The notes under the pieces were generated by a model. The model was not told where the DNA came from. It saw nothing but the letters and a program-made list of their open reading frames with translations, and did not search any database. 64,000 bases of DNA from Stenotrophomonas sp. 704A1 (lineage in GTDB: Bacteria > Pseudomonadota > Gammaproteobacteria > Xanthomonadales > Xanthomonadaceae). Both the position numbers and the translations under genes were made by a program. The DNA is taken from the NCBI RefSeq assembly GCF_030549525.1, contig NZ_CP130831.1, positions 2,629,501 through 2,693,500 on the forward strand, written 5' to 3'. Below, in pieces: positions 42,112-52,075 of this stretch (position 1 is its first letter; each line of letters begins with the position of its first letter).

Positions 42112-43032
42112 TTACTGCGCCGCGAGCGCGAAATCCAGCCCCGCACACACCGCCGCCACCTGGGCGTCGTTGCATTCCTGCGGATTGGTGCGCGGGCTGT
42201 CCGGGTAGACCTCGGTGGTGGTGGCATACAGCGCATCGGTAAAGCCGGCGCACGCGCCGATCGAACGCGACTCGCCCCAGACCACGCCGGGCGACTGCAG
42301 CGGCAGGCCGACCAGATTGCCCTCGGCATCGGCCGGGGCGATGTGGGTGATCGGGGCCACCGCGGCGATCAGGGCCTTCTGGAATTCCGGCTGCGGGTCT
42401 TCACTGTTGCCGATCACATAGAAGCCATCGGGAATGGTGTCGCGCTCGAACGGCTTGCCGTCACGGGCACAGCGCGCCGGGTCGAACTCGTGCAGGTCGC
42501 TGTCGGTGGTCTCGTGCAGGTCCAGATGGACGCGGATGTCGGCCTTGCGCTCGGCCACCCAGCGCATCAGCGAGGCGGCTTCCTCGATCTGCCCACCGTC
42601 GCGGAAGCTGCGGTTCGGGTCGATCGCCTGCGGGTTCCAGCGCTGGATGCGCTCGTACCCCCACGGGCTCACGCACGGGGCCACGATCAGGTTGAAGCGG
42701 CCCAGATAGCGCTCGGCCTGCTGCTCGAGGAACTGCAGGGCGCCATGCACACCACTGGTTTCATAGCCATGCACACCGCCGGTGACCAGGGCGGTCGGCA
42801 GGGCCGGGTTCCAGGCGTGGTTCACCACCGCGAACAGCGGGTAGTGGTCCGGCGCATAGTCCAGCTGGCCGTACTGGACCACGTCAAAGCGCTCGTCCAG
42901 CCGCTCCAGCGCGGCCACCACATCTTCGTGATAGCTGCGCTGGCGCTGCTGGCGGGCCCGCCACTGCGCACGCTCGGCATCGCCCCAGGGCTGTCCGGGG
43001 GTGCCGATCGGGTAGAACTGCGCAACGGTCAT
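42112..43032 (-). CDS. M14-family zinc carboxypeptidase-like protein
   Basis: 306 aa. The zinc site pattern is GGVHGYETSGVHGALQFLEQ (HxxE) with the later His in VHLDLHETTDSDLHEF, and the substrate-binding DPNRSFRDGG is in place. TTTEVYPDSPRTNP near the C-terminus supplies the catalytic Glu region. No signal peptide, so probably cytoplasmic. It resembles the succinylglutamate desuccinylase/aspartoacylase side of the M14 clan as well, and the substrate cannot be named. Confidence 0.85.
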   Translation of the reverse strand: MTVAQFYPIGTPGQPWGDAERAQWRARQQRQRSYHEDVVAALERLDERFDVVQYGQLDYAPDHYPLFAVVNHAWNPALPTALVTGGVHGYETSGVHGALQFLEQQAERYLGRFNLIVAPCVSPWGYERIQRWNPQAIDPNRSFRDGGQIEEAASLMRWVAERKADIRVHLDLHETTDSDLHEFDPARCARDGKPFERDTIPDGFYVIGNSEDPQPEFQKALIAAVAPITHIAPADAEGNLVGLPLQSPGVVWGESRSIGACAGFTDALYATTTEVYPDSPRTNPQECNDAQVAAVCAGLDFALAAQ

Positions 43033-43177: not shown

Positions 43178-43831
43178 ATGGCGAACGCAGCGCAGCCGGT
43201 CCTGGGTGGACCGGATTTCCTCCGCCTGCTCGCCCGTCTCAGTGACGGCGCGATGCCGGCCACCAGTCCCGCATTGACCGATCGCCTCGGCCAATGGGTG
43301 GACTGGAGCCGTGCCGTGGCCCTTGCCGGGGCGCTGGACGGGCGCCTGCCCGAGCCCGGCGAGGCCACCGAAGCCCTTGAGGATCTACGCGCGGACTGCG
43401 CCCAGGCCCACGCCAGCCTGCTGGCCTCGATCAGCGACGATGCCGAGGCCGAGCGCCTGCTGGACCTGGCCGAAGCCGCAGCCAGCCCCGACTTTGCCTC
43501 GCTGCGCCAGCGCTACCGCGTGCTGCAGCAGGCCATCCAGACCGCGACCGGCCGCCTGCGTGGCCGCCTGCGCGACCAGCTGGTGCAGCTGTCGCCAGCG
43601 CTGGCACGCCTGGCCGAGGTGGATGCGGTGATGGAGCAGACCCTCAGCCCACGCGAGCACAGCCTGCTGGGCACCGCGCCCGCCGTGCTGGGCTCACGTT
43701 TTGAACGCGTGCACGGCCAGCCCGGCTGGCGCGCGGCGTTCCGCCATGACATGCGCACGCTGCTGCTCGCCGAGCTGGAACTGCGCTTCCACCCGATCCA
43801 GGGGCTGCTTGCAGCCCTGCGCCCCCACTGA
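43178..43831 (+). CDS. DUF3348 protein, first gene of a motor-like cassette
   Basis: 217 aa, soluble and helical, rich in Ala, Leu and Arg (LARLSDGAMPATSPALTDRL, LAEVDAVMEQTLSPREHSLL, then RLHGQPGWR-like RVHGQPGWRAAFRHDM). I recognise the family as DUF3348, which sits upstream of DUF802 genes in beta- and gammaproteobacteria. The start at 43178 excludes an unsupported leader. It is followed 10 bases later by the DUF802 gene. Function unknown; it may be a cytoplasmic partner of the membrane complex. Confidence 0.75.
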   Translation: MANAAQPVLGGPDFLRLLARLSDGAMPATSPALTDRLGQWVDWSRAVALAGALDGRLPEPGEATEALEDLRADCAQAHASLLASISDDAEAERLLDLAEAAASPDFASLRQRYRVLQQAIQTATGRLRGRLRDQLVQLSPALARLAEVDAVMEQTLSPREHSLLGTAPAVLGSRFERVHGQPGWRAAFRHDMRTLLLAELELRFHPIQGLLAALRPH

Positions 43832-43841
43832 CCGGAACACC

Positions 43842-46106
43842 ATGTCCAGAACTGCTTTCCATGTCCTTGTTTTCCTTGCCGGCCTGCTGGCGGTGTGCTG
43901 GATCGGTGTCGGGTATGTCGCAGTGCATCCCCTGGGTGCGGCGGTGGCCGCAGTCATTGCCGCGTGCTACATCGCCGGTGGCGTCGAGCTGTACCGCTAC
44001 CGCCAGGCCAGCCATGGACTGCGCACCGCGCTGAATGACCTGTCCACCGCCGAGCAGGGCCTGTCGCCGTGGCTGGAGCGCGTGCCGGTGGGCCTGCGCA
44101 ATGCGGTGCGGCTGCGCGTGGAAGGCGAGCGCATCGCCCTGCCCGGCCCGGTGCTGACGCCGTACCTGGTGGGACTGCTGGTGCTGCTGGGCATGCTCGG
44201 CACGCTGCTCGGCATGATGGACACCCTGCGTGGTACCGGCCTCGCCCTGCAGAGCGCCACCGACATGGCCGCGATCCGCGGCTCGCTGGCTTCGCCGGTG
44301 CAAGGGCTGGCCGTGGCCTTCGGCACCTCGATCGCCGGCGTGGCCAGTTCGGCGATGCTGGGCCTGCTGTCGGCCCTGCTGCGCCGCGAGCGCCTGCAGG
44401 TGGTACAGCAGCTGGACCGCGCCATCGCCGGCACGCTGCATCCGTACTCGCAGGCCTGGCAGCGCGCCGAATCGCTGCGCCTGCTGCAGGCGCAGTCGGC
44501 CGCCCTGCCGGCCCTGGTCGACCGCCTGCAGGCGATGACCAGCGCCTTTGAACAGCACAGCGCCGCGGCCAACGAGCGCCTGCTGGCCGGCCAGTCCGAT
44601 TTCCTCACCCAGAGCCAGGCCCTTCAGGAACGCCTGGCTGCCTCGCTGCAGCAATCGCTGCGCGAGGGCGCCGAAGCGAGCGCAGCCGCCATGGGTGGCG
44701 CACTGCAGCCGATGGCCGAAGCCACGTTGGCCGGCTTGGCCCAGCAGGGTCAGGCGCTGCACGCGCGCGTCGAGCAGGCGGTGCAGCAGCAGCTGGCCGG
44801 GCTGGCCGACGGCTTCGAACGCAGCCGTGTGGCGACCGACGCCAGCTGGGCCAGGGTGGTGAGTGAGCAGACCCAGGCGCAGCAGGCGCTGGTGAGCGAC
44901 CTGCGCCAGCACCTGCAGGCCTTCAGTGACGGCCAGGGCACGCAGGCCGAGGCGCTGGTCGCGCGCATCGGCGAGCGCCTGCAGGCCGATGCCAGCCGCA
45001 ATGCAGACGCCTGGCGCGCCGCCGCAGAGCAGCAGCAGGCGCTCAATACCGCACTGGCCGAACGCCAGCAGCAGGCACTGCTCGCCGCTGGCCAGCAGCT
45101 GGACGAGCGCGCGCAGGCACTGCTGCAGGCGCTGGACCAGCGCCACGCTGCCAGCCAGTCGCTGCTGCAGGATCACGAACAGCAGCGCGTCCACGATTGG
45201 CAGGCCGCGCAGGTCGCCGCCGCCACTGCCCATGCCGAACTGCAGGCCAGCCTGGACAGCCGCGAGCAGCAGCGTCAGGCGCGCTGGGATGCGGTCAGTG
45301 CCGAACTGCAGCAGGCCCACGCCACGCTGCAGGCCCAGCTGCAGGCGGGTGACGAGCAACGCCTGCAGCGCTGGAGTGAGGCGCTGCAGCACATCTCCAC
45401 CGATCTGGCCGAGCGCCTGCAGGCCAACGGCGAACGTCTGGCCGCACAGCAGCAGCAGGTCTGCGACACGCTGGCGCAGACCGCACAGCAGATCGGCGAC
45501 AACGGCCGCGCCCAGGCCAGCGCCACGCTGGCCGAAGTGTCCACCCTGCTGCAGACCGCCGCCGCCGCGCCCAAGGCCGCCGCCGAGGTCATCAACGAGC
45601 TGCGCAGCACGCTGTCCGAGAGTCTGGTGCGCGACAACGCGATGCTGGAAGAGCGCGGCCGGCTGCTGGCCACGGTGCAGACCCTGCTGGAAGCGATCAA
45701 CCACGCCTCGCACGAACAGCGCACCGCGGTGGACGCACTGGTCGGTGGCTCGGCCGAGCTGCTGGAACGCGTCGGCAACCGCTTCACCGACCACATCGCT
45801 GCCGAGACCGGCAAGCTGGATGGCATTGCGGCAGCGCTCAGCGGCAGCGCCGGTGACGTCGGCCAGCTGGCCGGCGCCTTCGGCGAGGCCGTCGCACAGT
45901 TCGGCAGTGCCTCCACCGAACTGTCCGGCCGCCTGGAGCAGATCGGCGGCGCACTGGATGCCTCGCTGGCCCGCAGCGACGAGCAGCTGGCCTATTACGT
46001 GGCGCAGGCACGCGAGGTGGTCGACCTCAGCCTGCTGTCGCAGAAGCAGGTGATGGACGAACTGCAGCAGCTGGCCGCGCGCCGCGGCAAGGCCGGCAGC
46101 GCATGA
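43842..46106 (+). CDS. DUF802 membrane protein with MotA/ExbB/ZorA-like core and very long coiled-coil tail
   Basis: 754 aa. Four hydrophobic segments lie near residues 6-28, 31-50, 105-128 and 155-180. The last two carry LLGMLGTLLGMMDTL and SPVQGLAVAFGTSIAGVASS, the GLLGT...GLA.AFGTS pattern of MotA/ExbB/ZorA stator subunits. From residue 185 to the end the chain is about 570 residues of Ala/Gln/Glu-rich heptads (for example LLQALDQRHAASQSLLQDHE), a long cytoplasmic rod as in ZorA. It overlaps the OmpA-like partner gene by four bases. It probably forms a proton- or sodium-driven complex with that partner; the output is unknown. Confidence 0.8.
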   Translation: MSRTAFHVLVFLAGLLAVCWIGVGYVAVHPLGAAVAAVIAACYIAGGVELYRYRQASHGLRTALNDLSTAEQGLSPWLERVPVGLRNAVRLRVEGERIALPGPVLTPYLVGLLVLLGMLGTLLGMMDTLRGTGLALQSATDMAAIRGSLASPVQGLAVAFGTSIAGVASSAMLGLLSALLRRERLQVVQQLDRAIAGTLHPYSQAWQRAESLRLLQAQSAALPALVDRLQAMTSAFEQHSAAANERLLAGQSDFLTQSQALQERLAASLQQSLREGAEASAAAMGGALQPMAEATLAGLAQQGQALHARVEQAVQQQLAGLADGFERSRVATDASWARVVSEQTQAQQALVSDLRQHLQAFSDGQGTQAEALVARIGERLQADASRNADAWRAAAEQQQALNTALAERQQQALLAAGQQLDERAQALLQALDQRHAASQSLLQDHEQQRVHDWQAAQVAAATAHAELQASLDSREQQRQARWDAVSAELQQAHATLQAQLQAGDEQRLQRWSEALQHISTDLAERLQANGERLAAQQQQVCDTLAQTAQQIGDNGRAQASATLAEVSTLLQTAAAAPKAAAEVINELRSTLSESLVRDNAMLEERGRLLATVQTLLEAINHASHEQRTAVDALVGGSAELLERVGNRFTDHIAAETGKLDGIAAALSGSAGDVGQLAGAFGEAVAQFGSASTELSGRLEQIGGALDASLARSDEQLAYYVAQAREVVDLSLLSQKQVMDELQQLAARRGKAGSA

Positions 46107-46741
46107 GCGACGAGCTGGAGGTCGACGGCGGTTCACACGCCCCGATCTGGGCCGCATTCGGCGACCTGATGTCGGTGCTGCTGGGCGCGTTCGTGCTGAT
46201 CCTGGTCGGCGTGGTCGCGGTGCAGCTGGAGCTGTCGCAGCGGCTGGACCAGGAAGTGAAGCAGCGCCAGGCCGAAGCCAAGCGCCTGCAGACGCTGGAA
46301 CAGGCGCTGGCTGGGCCGTTGGCCGCCGGTCGCGTGACCCTGGTCGATGGCCGCATCGGCATCAGTGGCAGCGTGCTGTTCGCGCTGAACTCGGACCAGC
46401 TGCAGCCGGAAGGCCAGGAGCTGCTGCGCAGCCTGGCCGCGCCGCTGGCGGCCTACCTGGGTACGCGCGAAGAGATCCTGATGGTCAGCGGCTTCACCGA
46501 TGACGCACCGGTGCGCGAAGGCAACCGCCGTTTCGCCGACAACTGGGAGCTGTCCGCGCAGCGCTCGCTGACCGTGACCCGTACCCTGATCGCCAACGGC
46601 GTACCGGCCGACGCTGTGTTCGCTGCTGCGTTCGGCAGCGAGCAGCCGGTCAGTTCCAATGCCAGCGAAGACGGCCGCGCGCGCAACCGGCGCGTGGAGA
46701 TCGCGCCGATTCCCAAACCGAGGGCCCCGGATGCCAGGTAA
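46103..46741 (+). CDS. MotB/ZorB-like OmpA-domain protein
   Basis: 212 aa. One membrane helix near residues 15-40, APIWAAFGDLMSVLLGAFVL, places Asp21 where MotB and ZorB have the ion-binding aspartate. A short helical linker follows, then an OmpA-like peptidoglycan-binding domain from about residue 80 (VLFALNSDQLQPEGQELLRS, FTDDAPVREGNRRFADNWEL, ASEDGRARNRRVEI). Directly coupled to the DUF802 gene. The pair has the make-up of an ion-driven stator anchored to the cell wall. Confidence 0.88.
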   Translation: MSDELEVDGGSHAPIWAAFGDLMSVLLGAFVLILVGVVAVQLELSQRLDQEVKQRQAEAKRLQTLEQALAGPLAAGRVTLVDGRIGISGSVLFALNSDQLQPEGQELLRSLAAPLAAYLGTREEILMVSGFTDDAPVREGNRRFADNWELSAQRSLTVTRTLIANGVPADAVFAAAFGSEQPVSSNASEDGRARNRRVEIAPIPKPRAPDAR

Positions 46742-47108
46742 GCCGCCCGCGCTGGATGGCCTGCGCGCGCTGGTGCGCGACCTCGATGCGGGGTCGCGCG
46801 CGTTGCCGCACTACCCGCAGGTGCCGATGCTGGATGAGGTGCGCCGCGAGTGGTCCGCGCTGCGCAGCGAGCTGCAGGTACGCCGCACGCTGCGCACCGA
46901 GGCCCCGGCCGATGGCGGCCCGCTGAACTCGGCGGTGCTGGTGCAGCGCATGCTCGACACCCTGCAGGCCGCCAGCCCCGGCTACCTGCGGCACTTCATC
47001 GACTACGTGGATACGCTGTCCTGGCTGCAGGCGCTGCAGGAGGGTTCCGCCAGCAGTGCGGATAGCGCAAAGCCGAAGCGTACTCGCAAGCCGCGCAACG
47101 CGGGTTGA
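46731..47108 (+). CDS. DUF2894 protein, last gene of the motor-like cassette
   Basis: 125 aa, soluble, helical and basic at the C-terminus (KPKRTRKPRNAG). The pattern LDEVRREWSALRSELQVRRT and LVQRMLDTLQAASPGYLRHF fits DUF2894, which accompanies DUF802 and DUF3348 genes. The start at 46731 overlaps the OmpA-like gene by 11 bases. Function unknown. Confidence 0.75.
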   Translation: MPGKPPALDGLRALVRDLDAGSRALPHYPQVPMLDEVRREWSALRSELQVRRTLRTEAPADGGPLNSAVLVQRMLDTLQAASPGYLRHFIDYVDTLSWLQALQEGSASSADSAKPKRTRKPRNAG

Positions 47109-47184: not shown

Positions 47185-47943
47185 TCACCCGCGCAGGGTG
47201 GCGCCGCCATCCACGTACAGGTCACTCATCGCCACGTGCCCGGCCTGTTCGGACAGCAGGAACATCACCGAGTGCGCGATGTCTTCCGGGGTGGCCAGCT
47301 TGCGCAGCGGAATGCCGGCCTTGTAGGTCTCCAGGCTGCCGGCGATCACCCGCTCGGCGCCCCGTTCGTCCTGCCACATGCCGGTCTGCATCGGGGTCAG
47401 TGTCGACCCCGGCGCGACGATGTTGCAGCGGATGCCCAGCGGGGCCAGTTCCAGCCCGAGGCAGCGGGTGAACATGGTGGCGGCGGCCTTTGACGCGGCA
47501 TAGGCGGCCATGCCGTGCCGCGGGACCCCGGCCGCATTCGAACTGACGGTGACGATGGCGCCCTGCCCCCGCGGTGACATCACCCGCGCCAGCGCACGCC
47601 CCAGATGGAACACGCCATCCGCATTGACCGCGAACACACGGCGCCAGTCGGCATCGGTGGTCGCGGTCACCTCGCCCACGTGCAGCACCCCGGCCACGCT
47701 TGCGGCGAGCCCGATCGGCCCGATGCGGGCCTCTACACGATCCACCAGCGCATCGACCGCCACGCTGTCGGTCACGTCCAGCGCAAACGCCTGCACTCGG
47801 GCGTCCGTGACCACGGGCGCCTCGCGATCGGTTGCCACCACCGTGCAGCCCGCCTCGGCCAGCAGCCGTACCAGCGCGGCGCCGATGCCACCGGCAGCGC
47901 CGGTCACCAGCGCCACATTGCCCTCGAATCCGGTCAACTGCAT
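47185..47943 (-). CDS. entA: 2,3-dihydro-2,3-dihydroxybenzoate dehydrogenase
   Basis: 252 aa short-chain dehydrogenase; makes 2,3-dihydroxybenzoate (DHB) from its dihydro precursor with NAD. Cofactor motif [18 protein letters not shown], then [11 protein letters not shown], and the active-site pair [17 protein letters not shown] and [13 protein letters not shown] [19 protein letters not shown] fit EntA over general reductases. It overlaps the entF end by ten bases and is the last gene of the ent operon. Confidence 0.93.
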
Positions 47944-50900
47944 GCTGCGATCTCCTGTTGTTCATCCCACTGCCGCAGCCGTGCCGACAGCCACGGCGCC
48001 AGCTGCGCCACTGCATCGCGCCCGGTCAGCTCGGCATGCAGGAACGGCAGCTCGATCGCATCGACCTGCAGTGCATGGGCCTTCCACAGTGCAGATTGCA
48101 GCTGCGGCCGTGTCAGATGGTCACGACCGGCGCGCACATGCGCCAGCGTGCCAACGAACGGGCGGTGCTGGTGCTCGCGGATCAGGCGATTGGTGCCGGT
48201 CACCGCCCGCACCACGCCGTCCAGCACCGCGTCGGGCAGGCTGCCCAGGGCGCTGCCACCGCGCCGCAGGAAGGCCAGGATACGCTCGCGATCGTCCAGC
48301 TCGGGATGTGCGTCCGGGTCGTGCCCGGCGATTGCCAGCAGTGCGCGCAGCGCGGCGATCGGATCCGGCTCGGGTTCGGCGCGCCAGCACTCGCTGGGAT
48401 AGGCATCGAGCAGCACCAGCTCCCCCACGTCGCGGCCGATCTCGTGCAGGCGCACGGCCATCGCCTGGGCCAGGATGCCGCCGACCGACCACCCCAGCAG
48501 GTGCACCGGCCCCTGCGGCTGCAGCGCAATCACGCGCTGCACGTAGTCGTTGGCCATCGCTTCGATGCTGGCCGGCAGTGGCTGGGTCGGATCCAGCGCG
48601 GGTGATTGCAGGCCATACACCGCGCGCGCCGGTTGCAGGGCGCGGGCCAGCGCGCGGTAGTTCCAGGCGATGCCACCGGCCGGATGCAGCACGAACAAGG
48701 GCGACCGTTCGACGCCGTCGGTGGCGGCCAGCGCGATCACCGGTCCCAGCGCGTGGTCGGCCCGTGCCGGCGGTTCGGCGATGCGTGCCGCCAGCGCGGC
48801 CACCGTCGGCTGCGCGAACAGCGCCCCGAGGCCCAGCTCGCAGCGCCAGCGCTGTTCGATGGCCAACAGCAGATGCACCGCCGACAACGAATCCCCGCCC
48901 AGGCTGAAGAAGTCCGCATCGACCGCCACCGGAACCTCGCGGCCCAGCGCCTGCGCGAACAGCGCCGCCAGTTCCCGTTCCAGCGGCGTGCGCGGCGCCA
49001 GGCCAGCCGCCTCCTGCAGCGCTGGTTTCGGCAATGCCGCGCGGTCCAGCTTGCCGTTGGCGGTGACCGGCCAATGATCCACGCCAACGAACGCCGTGGG
49101 CACCATGTAGTCCGGCACACGGGTGGCCAGATGGCTGCGCAGCACGGTGGCGTCTGCCAGCGCGGACGGCACATAGGCCACCAGCCGGGCGTCACCGGGG
49201 GCGTCCTGGCGCAGCAGCACTTCCACCCGGTCCATGCCGGGCAGTTCGCGCAGCGCGGCCTCGATCTCGCCCAGCTCGATGCGCAGGCCGCGCAGCTTCA
49301 CCTGATGGTCGCTGCGGCCCAGGTACTCGACCGCGCCGTCGGCACGCCAGCGCGCCACATCGCCGGTCCGGTAGATGCGCTCACCCGGCAGGAACGGGTC
49401 GTCCATGAAACGCTCGGCGGTCAGATCGGTGCGGCCCAGATAGCCGCGTGCGAGCTGGACGCCGCCCAGGTACAGGTCGCCCGGCACGCCGACCGGCAGC
49501 GGCTGCATGCGCGTGTCCAGCACGTACAGGCGGGTGTTCCAGACCGGGAAGCCGATTGGTACCGGCCGCGCCCGGTCTTCGGCCGAGGCCGGCCAGTAGC
49601 TGACATCCACTGCGGCCTCGGTCGGTCCGTACAGATTGTGCAGTTCGGCCTGCACCCGCGCATGGAAGCGATCCCGCAACGATGCATCCAGCGCTTCGCC
49701 ACTGGTGAACACGCGCCGCAGCTGCAGGCGCGCCGATGCGGGTGCGGCCAGGAATGCGTCGAGCATCGACGGCACGAAATGTGCCGTGGTGATGCCCTGC
49801 GTGCGGATCAGCCGCGCCAGTTCGCTGGGATCGCGATGGGCATCCGGCCCGGCGATCACCAGCGTGGCGCCACACAGCAGCGGCAGGAACAACTCCCAGA
49901 CCGAGACATCGAAGGTGATCGGGGTCTTCTGCAGCACGCGGTCATCGGCGCCGATGCCATAGTGCTCGCGCATCCACAGCAGGCGGTTGACGATGGCGCG
50001 GTGCTCGATGACCACGCCCTTCGGCTCGCCGGTCGAGCCGGAGGTATAGATCACATACGCCGCGTCGACCGGTGCGGGGCCGGCCCACGGCGCAGCGAAG
50101 CTCACTGCGTTCCAGTCTGCAGGTGGCAGCACCGGGACGCCCGGCATGCGCGGCTGCACCTCGGCCGCGGCCAGCACGCAGGCCGGCTGCGCCGAGGCAA
50201 GGATGCGCGCCAGCCGCTCATCGGGATGGGCAAGGTCCAGCGGCAGGTAGGCGGCGCCGGCGCGCAGCACCGCCACCAGCGCGATCATCAGGTCCAGTGA
50301 CCGCGGCAACGCCACGGCCACCACGCTGCCCGGGCCGACGCCCATTGCGCGCAGCTGCGCGGCCAGGGCGAAACTGCGGGCTTCGAGCGTAGCGTGATCC
50401 ATCCCGGCATCGCCGAAGACCAGCGCGGGCGCGTGCGGATCACGGTCCATGCCCTGCTGCAGCAGTTCAACCAACGTGGTCGGCGGCAGCGCATGCGCGG
50501 TGGCATTGAACTGGTGTATCCCCTGCTGCGCTTCTTCGGTGGTGGCCAGCGGCACCGCTGCGATGTCGTCAGCCTCCAGCGCCGCCGACACGAAATGCAG
50601 CAGCCGCGCCGCGTGCGATTGCACGTCCTCGCGGCTGTACAGCGCAGGATTGGCTTCAATCTCCAGATCAAGCAGGTGCTGGCCGTCGCCGCGGAAGCCC
50701 AGGGTCAGATCATCGACCGGCCCGGTGCACAGCACCTCCAGCGTGGCCTGCACGCCCGGCAGGGCCAGTGGCCTGTAGAACGGCTGCACATTCACCAACG
50801 GCCCATGCAGCCGTTGCTGCGCACCCACCAGGCCGAGGTCGCGGCGCAGCTGCTCGCCGCGATAACGGCCGTGCTTGCGGCCCTGGCTGAGTTGCCGGCC

Positions 50901-51824
50901 CAGCGCCCGGGCAAACGCCTCGACACTGCCCTCGCCGGCCGCCACCCGCAGCGGCAGCACGTTCATCACCATTGCCGGCACACGCGCCGACGCGTTTCCG
51001 AGCCTCCCCATGTAGGGCACGCCCAGCACCACCTCATCGGCGGCGCTCATCCGGCGCAGGTACTCGGCGGCGAGCGCGGCCAGTACATCCGGCCAAGGCT
51101 GCAACCAGCGCACCGAGGCCTGCAGCAGCCGCTCACGGAACCCGGCATCCAACGGCTGCACCCAGCGCAGCGCGTCATCGCTGGCGGCCACGGTGCCCGC
51201 CAGGCCCACGCCTGCGGGCGCCCCCTGCAACTGCGCGTGCCACCATTGCCCGGCCTGTGCACGGCGCGGATCGGTGCGGTAGGCCGCATCATCGGCCAGC
51301 ACACCGGCCAACCCCGGCAGCGGCTCACTCGACTGCCCGGCATACAGTGCGCAGACCCGGTCGGTGAACAACGCCATGCCATAGCCGTCGGCGGCCAGAT
51401 GATGCACACGCAGGTACCAGACCCAGCGCAGGCCACCCAGATCGAACAACACCTGCTGGCTGATCCGGTCCCGGGTCGGATCGACCGCGCTGAGCCGGTC
51501 GGCCTGCATCAGGGCACGCGCCGCCGACGCCGGATCGGCCTCGGCGGATACATCACGCACCGACAGCAGCGGCACATGTGCCGGCGCATGCCACTGCAGC
51601 GGCTGGCCATCAGCGCCTTCGGCGAAGCGCAGTGCGAACGCCTCGGCTTCCACCGCTGCGCGGTTGGCGGCCGCGCTGAACGCGGCCACGTCCAGCGGCC
51701 CTTCGATCCATACCGCATGCGCGGTGTTGAACGACGGATTGTCCGCGGCCAACCGCTGCGCGAACCACAGTCCGGCCTGGGCCTCGGTCAGTGCCACCGG
51801 CGTGGCCAGCGCAGCGGCGTTCAT
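47934..51824 (-). CDS. entF: Enterobactin synthetase component F-like NRPS (C-A-PCP-TE)
   Basis: 1296 aa, almost the length of E. coli EntF. Condensation domain (residues about 10-430) with [10 protein letters not shown]; adenylation domain (about 470-900) with [20 protein letters not shown], expected to load serine; carrier domain with [15 protein letters not shown]; thioesterase domain (about 1040-1290) with [15 protein letters not shown]. It condenses DHB with serine and releases the siderophore. The start at 51824 overlaps the aryl carrier stop (ATGA). The final product (cyclic trimer or linear forms) cannot be told from sequence. Confidence 0.94.
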
Positions 51825-52075
51825 GCGTTCTGCGCGGCCTGCAGCTTCTGCACCACACCCCACCACTGGCGCAGCGTGGTGTGCTCGGCCAGCTGCGAGA
51901 ACTCCAGCGGCAGGCCGGTATTGCCCCAGGCCAGGACCAGGCCGAGCATGCGCATCGAATCCAGGTCCAGGTCGATCAGGTTGTCATCATCACCGATCTC
52001 GGCCGGTGAGCAGTCCAGCACACGCGCCACGTCGGCACGCATGCGCTCCAGGTCCAACGGTGCAGCGGCTTCCAT
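51821..52075 (-). CDS. Stand-alone aryl carrier protein (EntB C-terminal domain equivalent)
   Basis: 84 aa. DDDNLIDLDLDSMRMLGLVL carries the serine that receives the phosphopantetheine arm. The helical layout and QLAEHTTLRQWWGVVQ match the ArCP half of E. coli EntB, here a separate gene. The start overlaps the isochorismatase stop in a TGATG junction and the end overlaps entF, so stoichiometry is kept by coupling. It accepts DHB from EntE and passes it to EntF. Confidence 0.88.
   Translation of the reverse strand: MEAAAPLDLERMRADVARVLDCSPAEIGDDDNLIDLDLDSMRMLGLVLAWGNTGLPLEFSQLAEHTTLRQWWGVVQKLQAAQNA

What the first reader, a model, noticed from the sequence alone, without database searches (positions are those of the whole stretch)
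43178..47108. Uncharacterised ion-driven envelope motor: DUF3348-DUF802-OmpA-DUF2894
The DUF802 protein has MotA/ExbB/ZorA-type helices and a rod of about 570 residues; its partner has a MotB-like helix with Asp21 and a peptidoglycan-binding OmpA domain. Genes overlap or nearly touch. The same plan, a stator with a long cytoplasmic tail, is that of ZorAB in Zorya anti-phage defence, but ZorC, ZorD and ZorE are missing and two unknown soluble proteins take their place. This is the strongest candidate in the window for an undescribed system.
Basis: partly seen in the sequence, partly recalled or inferred. Interest (0 to 1): 0.72.

Follow-up and report, generated by a model that had tools for sequence, protein, structure and literature searches.

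The report
Zorya type III anti-phage motor operon
These four genes are not an undescribed machine but a copy of Zorya type III, a published membrane-motor system that protects bacteria from viruses; the unusual part is that almost every sampled genome of this genus keeps exactly one copy, which is not how defence genes usually behave.

Summary
Window 43178-47108 holds four co-directional genes, and all four products match PADLOC Zorya type III models (E from 0 to 3.2e-68). Zorya III was defined in 2021, and a Stenotrophomonas nitritireducens copy reduced plaquing in E. coli (PMC8565338). ZorB Asp21 and ZorA Thr121 and Thr162 are invariant in 41 of 41 loci. Likely mechanism: an ion-driven, wall-tethered ZorAB stator senses phage-damaged envelope and signals down its tail to two soluble proteins. 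For type III every step after "it protects" is inferred.

New here: the system is near-core and single-copy. ZorB3 is in 88 of 91 genomes of the genus, against 46 of 91 for a restriction domain and 6 of 91 for BREX PglZ. DUF3348 is in 20 of 20 and 51 of 60 genomes of two other genera. Few flanking genes look like defence genes. One copy clearly crossed families; without that genome, family and order groupings are not rejected. Structure prediction never ran.

The parts
43178..43831 (+). DUF3348 protein, 217 aa (ZorF in the 2021 paper, ZorG3 in PADLOC-DB v2); no membrane segment
   Evidence: Pfam PF11828 1.5e-60; PADLOC PDLC00658 2.6e-76; no hydrophobic window
43842..46106 (+). ZorA3, 754 aa: MotA/ExbB-type membrane core plus a tail of about 570 residues with DUF802 repeats and a conserved C-terminal region (about 569-734)
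   Evidence: PADLOC PDLC00647 E=0 over residues 1-753; DUF802, two stretches; PDB 8vvn_C, solved type I ZorA, profile E 2.4e-4 over residues 110-182; T121 and T162 invariant 41/41
46103..46741 (+). ZorB3, 212 aa: one membrane helix with Asp21, OmpA/peptidoglycan-binding domain (92-196)
   Evidence: PADLOC PDLC00651 2.9e-115; OmpA 8.6e-19; 8vvn_B, solved type I ZorB; D21 41/41
46731..47108 (+). DUF2894 protein, 125 aa (ZorG in the 2021 paper, ZorF3 in PADLOC-DB v2); N-terminally short form with a basic C-terminal tail
   Evidence: Pfam PF11445 2.2e-25; PADLOC PDLC00654 3.2e-68; start by overlap with zorB and by alignment; last 30 residues net +4 here, +3 or more in 78 of 79 homologues

Best explanation
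The locus is a complete Zorya type III anti-phage system of a Stenotrophomonas maltophilia-like bacterium (the identity alone I hold at about 0.97). ZorA and ZorB form a MotAB-like stator in the inner membrane (5:2 by homology). ZorB's OmpA domain grips peptidoglycan when the wall is pushed or damaged by an injecting phage; ions then pass by Asp21 and turn ZorA, and the rotation or strain runs down the long helical ZorA tail. The tail's conserved end recruits or activates the DUF3348 and DUF2894 proteins, which take the place of ZorCD or the ZorE nickase and act on, or block, the incoming DNA. Shown: gene content, homology, invariant ion-path residues, and (by others, for a S. nitritireducens copy) phage protection. 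Inferred: wall sensing and ion flow in type III, tail-to-partner contact, and what the two soluble proteins do.
For: All four proteins match Zorya III models. A S. nitritireducens Zorya III operon lowered plaquing in E. coli BL21-AI (PMC8565338). The ZorA core aligns to the solved type I ZorA with T121 and T162 on Thr; that these are its ion-path Ser/Thr ring is my inference. ZorB matches 8vvn_B and 8qyd_F. Asp21 invariant 41/41 and aligned with the MotB Asp. In types I and II the Asp, the wall-binding domain and the ZorA tail are needed for defence (PMC11890865). DUF3348 and DUF2894 occur in the same 42 of 200 genomes of the order and beside zorAB in all 41 loci examined. The tail has a helical repeat near 3.66 residues: 57 of 75 tails against 13 of 200 shuffles. 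The DUF2894 tail is basic, which fits nucleic-acid or membrane contact.
Against: No nuclease, helicase or other enzyme domain was found in DUF3348 or DUF2894, and profile searches of the PDB gave nothing below E 0.2, so the effector step is open. Near-core occupancy and few defence-gene neighbours are unlike typical defence loci, and apart from one genome the trees do not clearly show transfer between families. The window's DUF2894 lacks about 90 N-terminal residues. ZorB3 has Phe131 (41/41) in the GxTD motif; of the five solved chains shown three have His there, one Tyr and one Phe. A His reported as needed for wall binding in types I and II is probably this position (my inference). No structure could be predicted.
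Confidence: 0.7

Rival explanations
1. Zorya III is first of all a resident envelope machine with a day-to-day job (wall or membrane stress, division, uptake); phage protection when over-expressed in E. coli is a side effect or one facet.
For: Near-universal single copy: 88/91, 20/20, 51/60, against 46/91 HSDR_N and 6/91 PglZ. Of 105 flanking ORFs from other loci, three PADLOC models match one member each at 1e-15, and 0 of 5 near neighbours in the window match at 0.001; Pfam shows TonB receptors, transporters and regulators (25 of 61 families shown). All 27 plasmid records with it are 366 kb or larger; the only phage match is to the OmpA domain. With genome G080 left out, monophyly of family f12, of family f1 and of the two families together is not rejected on the Zorya proteins (p 0.064, 0.18, 0.47).
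Against: A representative defends E. coli. Neighbourhoods vary within the genus (8 upstream types in 23 assessable loci, 8 downstream types in 24). One genome of another family holds a copy from this genus's clade, and the RpoB topology is rejected with or without it. Two high-quality genomes of the genus lack it (G213, G217), as do 11 of 23 listed family members outside the genus.
Confidence: 0.22
2. It defends, but by opening the ion path to depolarise the infected cell (abortive infection), with DUF3348/DUF2894 as gates, not DNA-acting effectors.
For: Payne et al. proposed the two proteins as regulators of ZorAB; no enzyme domain found in either.
Against: For types I and II ZorAB is reported to recruit soluble proteins that act on DNA (PMC11890865); the basic DUF2894 tail fits DNA contact.
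Confidence: 0.15
3. In S. maltophilia and its nearest relatives the system is decaying: DUF2894 lost its N-terminal part and the operon no longer works.
For: DUF2894 is 122-127 aa in all 11 loci L149-L159; 16 of 79 are below 150 aa, against a median of 216 in 74 loci.
Against: dN/dS about 0.16-0.25 for DUF2894 and 0.01-0.06 for ZorB in five close comparisons; invariant motifs kept; 88/91 occupancy.
Confidence: 0.05

Closest known systems
Zorya type III (Payne et al. 2021, PADLOC)
   Same: All four genes, the ZorAB pair flanked by DUF3348 and DUF2894; same genus as the tested S. nitritireducens copy (genus of the window inferred)
   Different: Short DUF2894 (125 aa) and somewhat short DUF3348; the window's own copy is untested
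Zorya types I and II (solved ZorAB: 8VVN and 8VVI, PMC11890865; 8QYD, whose identity I recall)
   Same: MotA/MotB-like core, ion-path Asp, Thr of the core, OmpA-type ZorB domain, long ZorA tail
   Different: No ZorC/ZorD/ZorE; ZorA tail has DUF802 repeats; Phe in the ZorB GxTD motif
Flagellar MotAB / PomAB and ExbBD / TolQR stators
   Same: Same core family; Asp21 aligns with the MotB Asp
   Different: Long cytoplasmic rod, two extra soluble partners, no flagellar or Ton gene among the near neighbours scanned

Membership tests
Zorya type III | ZorA: MotA/TolQ/ExbB core plus long tail | tested here: met
   PDLC00647 E=0, residues 1-753; 8vvn_C match
Zorya type III | ZorB: membrane helix with ion-path Asp plus OmpA domain | tested here: met
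   PDLC00651 2.9e-115; Asp21 41/41; OmpA 8.6e-19
Zorya type III | DUF3348 gene beside zorAB | tested here: met
   PF11828 1.5e-60, PDLC00658 2.6e-76
Zorya type III | DUF2894 gene beside zorAB | tested here: met
   PF11445 2.2e-25, PDLC00654 3.2e-68
Zorya type III | Protects against phage | not testable with these tools
   Shown in print for S. nitritireducens DSM 12575, not for this locus
Zorya (all types) | ZorA5B2 assembly, ion flow, wall binding | not testable with these tools
Zorya type I | ZorC and ZorD genes in the operon | tested here: not met
   None of the four proteins matches ZorC or ZorD; 0 of 5 near neighbours matches any PADLOC model at 0.001
Zorya type II | ZorE (HNH nickase) gene | tested here: not met
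   No ZorE match among the four proteins or 5 near neighbours
Flagellar MotAB stator | Full MotA match and flagellar context | tested here: not met
   MotA_ExbB only 18.9 bits against a cut-off of 22.9; no flagellar gene among the near neighbours scanned

The most novel reading that the evidence does not exclude
Zorya III is not an optional defence cassette but a near-core, single-copy envelope surveillance motor of Xanthomonadales and Burkholderiales, kept mostly by descent with occasional transfer, placed outside defence islands; its DUF3348/DUF2894 pair is a new kind of stator-coupled effector without a nuclease domain and may also serve normal envelope upkeep.
Probability: 0.25. Interest if true: 0.68.

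Novelty: already known. Interest (0 to 1): 0.32.

Why it matters
The locus itself adds one more copy of a published system. What deserves a specialist's time is the distribution. The 2021 paper describes its systems together as patchy at genus level (its supplementary figure not seen), but here Zorya III is in most or all sampled genomes of three genera, with few defence genes beside it. Either some lineages keep an anti-phage motor as standard equipment, or the motor also has another job. A clean deletion would tell. The type III effector step is also unsolved.

Tried and rejected
Undescribed system: rejected by PADLOC and the 2021 paper. Type I, type II and MotAB membership: rejected. Decaying relic: unlikely. 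Frequent transfer between families: I first read that way (f12 and genus monophyly rejected at p 1e-44 and 1.6e-5), but, with G080 left out, gives p 0.064 and 0.0485, so those rejections rest mostly on one genome; for this the main confidence went from 0.72 to 0.70 and the resident-machine rival from 0.20 to 0.22. Homology between DUF3348 and DUF2894: none. Known folds for either by profile: none. Tail indels in steps of 11 residues: no clear signal. Promoter and terminator scan: nothing found. PHROGs: only the OmpA part of ZorB. The RpoB tree was wrong (minus-strand loci read on the wrong strand); crashed; one search replaces it. The Zorya tree stands. Flank scan: 105 of 115 chosen ORFs, from 45 of 74 loci; ORFs over 900 aa were left out beforehand. 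Trees used 30 of 41 genomes. One search timed out without output and was redone as (fast tree search).

Full report
What is there. The four genes are real, on the + strand, 10 bp apart or overlapping by 4 and 11 bp. The products are DUF3348 (217 aa), a 754-aa MotA/ExbB-like protein with DUF802 repeats, a 212-aa MotB-like protein with an OmpA domain, and DUF2894 (125 aa from ATG 46731). Pfam, PADLOC and NCBIfam were scanned. PADLOC matches all four to Zorya type III (DUF3348 2.6e-76, ZorA3 E=0, ZorB3 2.9e-115, DUF2894 3.2e-68). NCBIfam still calls the ZorB a hypothetical protein (NF006547, 1.5e-113). The closest named ZorB is 99% identical, from S. maltophilia SJTL3.

What it is. The literature searches led to Payne et al. 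2021 (PMC8565338; passages seen). They found 6,401 such gene pairs flanked by DUF3348 and DUF2894 genes, named them Zorya type III, and showed lower plaquing with a Stenotrophomonas nitritireducens copy in E. coli BL21-AI. Mariano et al. 2025 (PMC11890865; [quoted passage not shown] A Variovorax is listed with Zorya III (PMC11953036, passage). Passages on Zorya were also seen in PMC9148166, PMC13367071 and PMC13190303. The Nature structure paper is not held.

Anatomy. ZorB Asp21 is invariant in 41 of 41 loci, with W16, F19, L22, M23, G28 and F30. ZorA T121 and T162 are invariant in 41 of 41 and align to Thr of 'IGT' and 'LTS' in the solved type I ZorA. Asp21 aligns with the MotB Asp in solved MotB chains. 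The ZorA tail varies (whole protein 640-1056 aa in 41 loci, starts chosen by script) but its end, about 569-734, is strongly conserved. Tail hydrophobicity peaks at a period of 3.64-3.69 residues in 57 of 75 tails (of 80; related sequences, those of full length) against 13 of 200 shuffles, with almost no power at 3.5; the conserved end of a close relative's tail has a different period, near 3.58. This suggests a hendecad-like rather than heptad coiled coil (inference). DUF3348 and DUF2894 have no membrane segment and no known fold by profile. The last 30 residues of DUF2894 carry +3 or more in 78 of 79 sequences.

Linkage. DUF3348 and DUF2894 occur in the same 42 of 200 genomes of the order. 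All four genes have the same order in 41 of 41 loci (loci chosen by DUF3348) and in 74 of 80 named loci, the other 6 lacking one end gene at or near a contig end. dN/dS in five comparisons is about 0.01-0.06 for ZorB, 0.11-0.14 for ZorA, 0.15-0.20 for DUF3348 and 0.16-0.25 for DUF2894.

Distribution. ZorB3 (E 1.4e-105 or better) is in 88 of 91 genomes of the genus, 84 of 86 high-quality ones. DUF3348 is in 87 of 91, the extra miss, G224, being a contig end. A Xanthomonas-like genus has 20 of 20 and a Burkholderia-like genus 51 of 60; these two genus names are inferred. Each positive genome has it at one place; double hits are pieces of one place. In the family outside the genus 12 have it and 11 listed ones do not. 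In a phylum-wide sample it is 19 of 398 over the cut-off, all in one GTDB class, plus one weak match below cut-off in another; the 2021 paper reports several phyla. Comparators in the same 91 genomes: PglZ 6 over cut-off (9 at E 0.001), HSDR_N 46 over cut-off (47 at E 0.001). Plasmids: 27 of 72,556 records, all 366 kb or larger. Phages: one match, to the OmpA domain only. Among 105 flanking ORFs, three PADLOC models match one member each; the Pfam families shown (25 of 61) are ordinary. None of 5 near neighbours in the window matches PADLOC.

History. ZorB identity tracks RpoB only partly (Spearman 0.61). Genome G080, of another family, has ZorB 86% identical to a clade of this genus while RpoB is 82% identical, and groups with that clade at support 1.0 on ZorB alone: a transfer between families. 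On ZorA+ZorB+DUF3348 the AU test rejects the RpoB topology (p about 1e-42), monophyly of family f12 (1e-44) and of the genus (1.6e-5), but not of the Xanthomonadales sampled (0.065). With G080 removed, f12 (0.064), family f1 (0.18) and the two together (0.47) are not rejected, the genus is borderline (0.0485), and the RpoB topology is still rejected (2.5e-4). So one transfer is clear and the rest is mostly compatible with descent at family level. One pair hints at an older exchange: window and a Burkholderia-like genome have ZorB 71% and RpoB 68% identical. Neighbourhoods: 8 upstream types in 23 assessable Stenotrophomonas loci (a 24th has only 475 bp upstream) and 8 downstream types in 24.

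Mechanism. See the best explanation. The defence claim rests on a close relative. Wall sensing, ion flow and tail signalling are carried over from types I and II. The role of DUF3348/DUF2894 is my inference. Naming: the 2021 paper calls DUF3348 ZorF and DUF2894 ZorG; PADLOC-DB v2 has them the other way round.

Verdict. A complete copy of a published system. The near-core occupancy is the part worth following; in the searches named above (open-access library, most hits seen only as listings) I saw no paper stating it.

Noticed in passing
window 46731-47108: DUF2894 lacks about 90 N-terminal residues in all 11 loci L149-L159 of S. maltophilia and near relatives (122-127 aa against a median of 216 aa).
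   Followed up: partly
PADLOC-DB v2 and PMC8565338: ZorF and ZorG names are swapped between the 2021 paper and the PADLOC models; the paper's text also says 'zorBC' pairs where zorAB is probably meant.
   Followed up: no
L102 (genome G080): A genome of another family carries a Zorya III from this genus's clade: inter-family transfer.
   Followed up: yes
window 47185-51866: Next door lies a 2,3-dihydro-2,3-dihydroxybenzoate dehydrogenase gene and a large open frame that reads like a siderophore peptide synthetase (my reading); the downstream neighbourhood differs among S. maltophilia-like loci.
   Followed up: no
window 42112-43032 (-): Divergent AstE/AspA- or M14-carboxypeptidase-like gene upstream, found beside the operon only in the closest relatives of the 41 loci compared.
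   Followed up: no
window 43644-46157 (-): An 837-aa open frame lies antisense to zorA; likely a high-GC artefact.
   Followed up: no
G224:C150 (L229) and G194: A zorA with one in-frame TGA in a draft genome and a DUF2894 with one in-frame TAG: possible pseudogenes or assembly errors.
   Followed up: no
Corynebacterium glutamicum control genome: The DUF2894 Pfam model scores over its cut-off there, far from the Zorya III hosts seen here.
   Followed up: no
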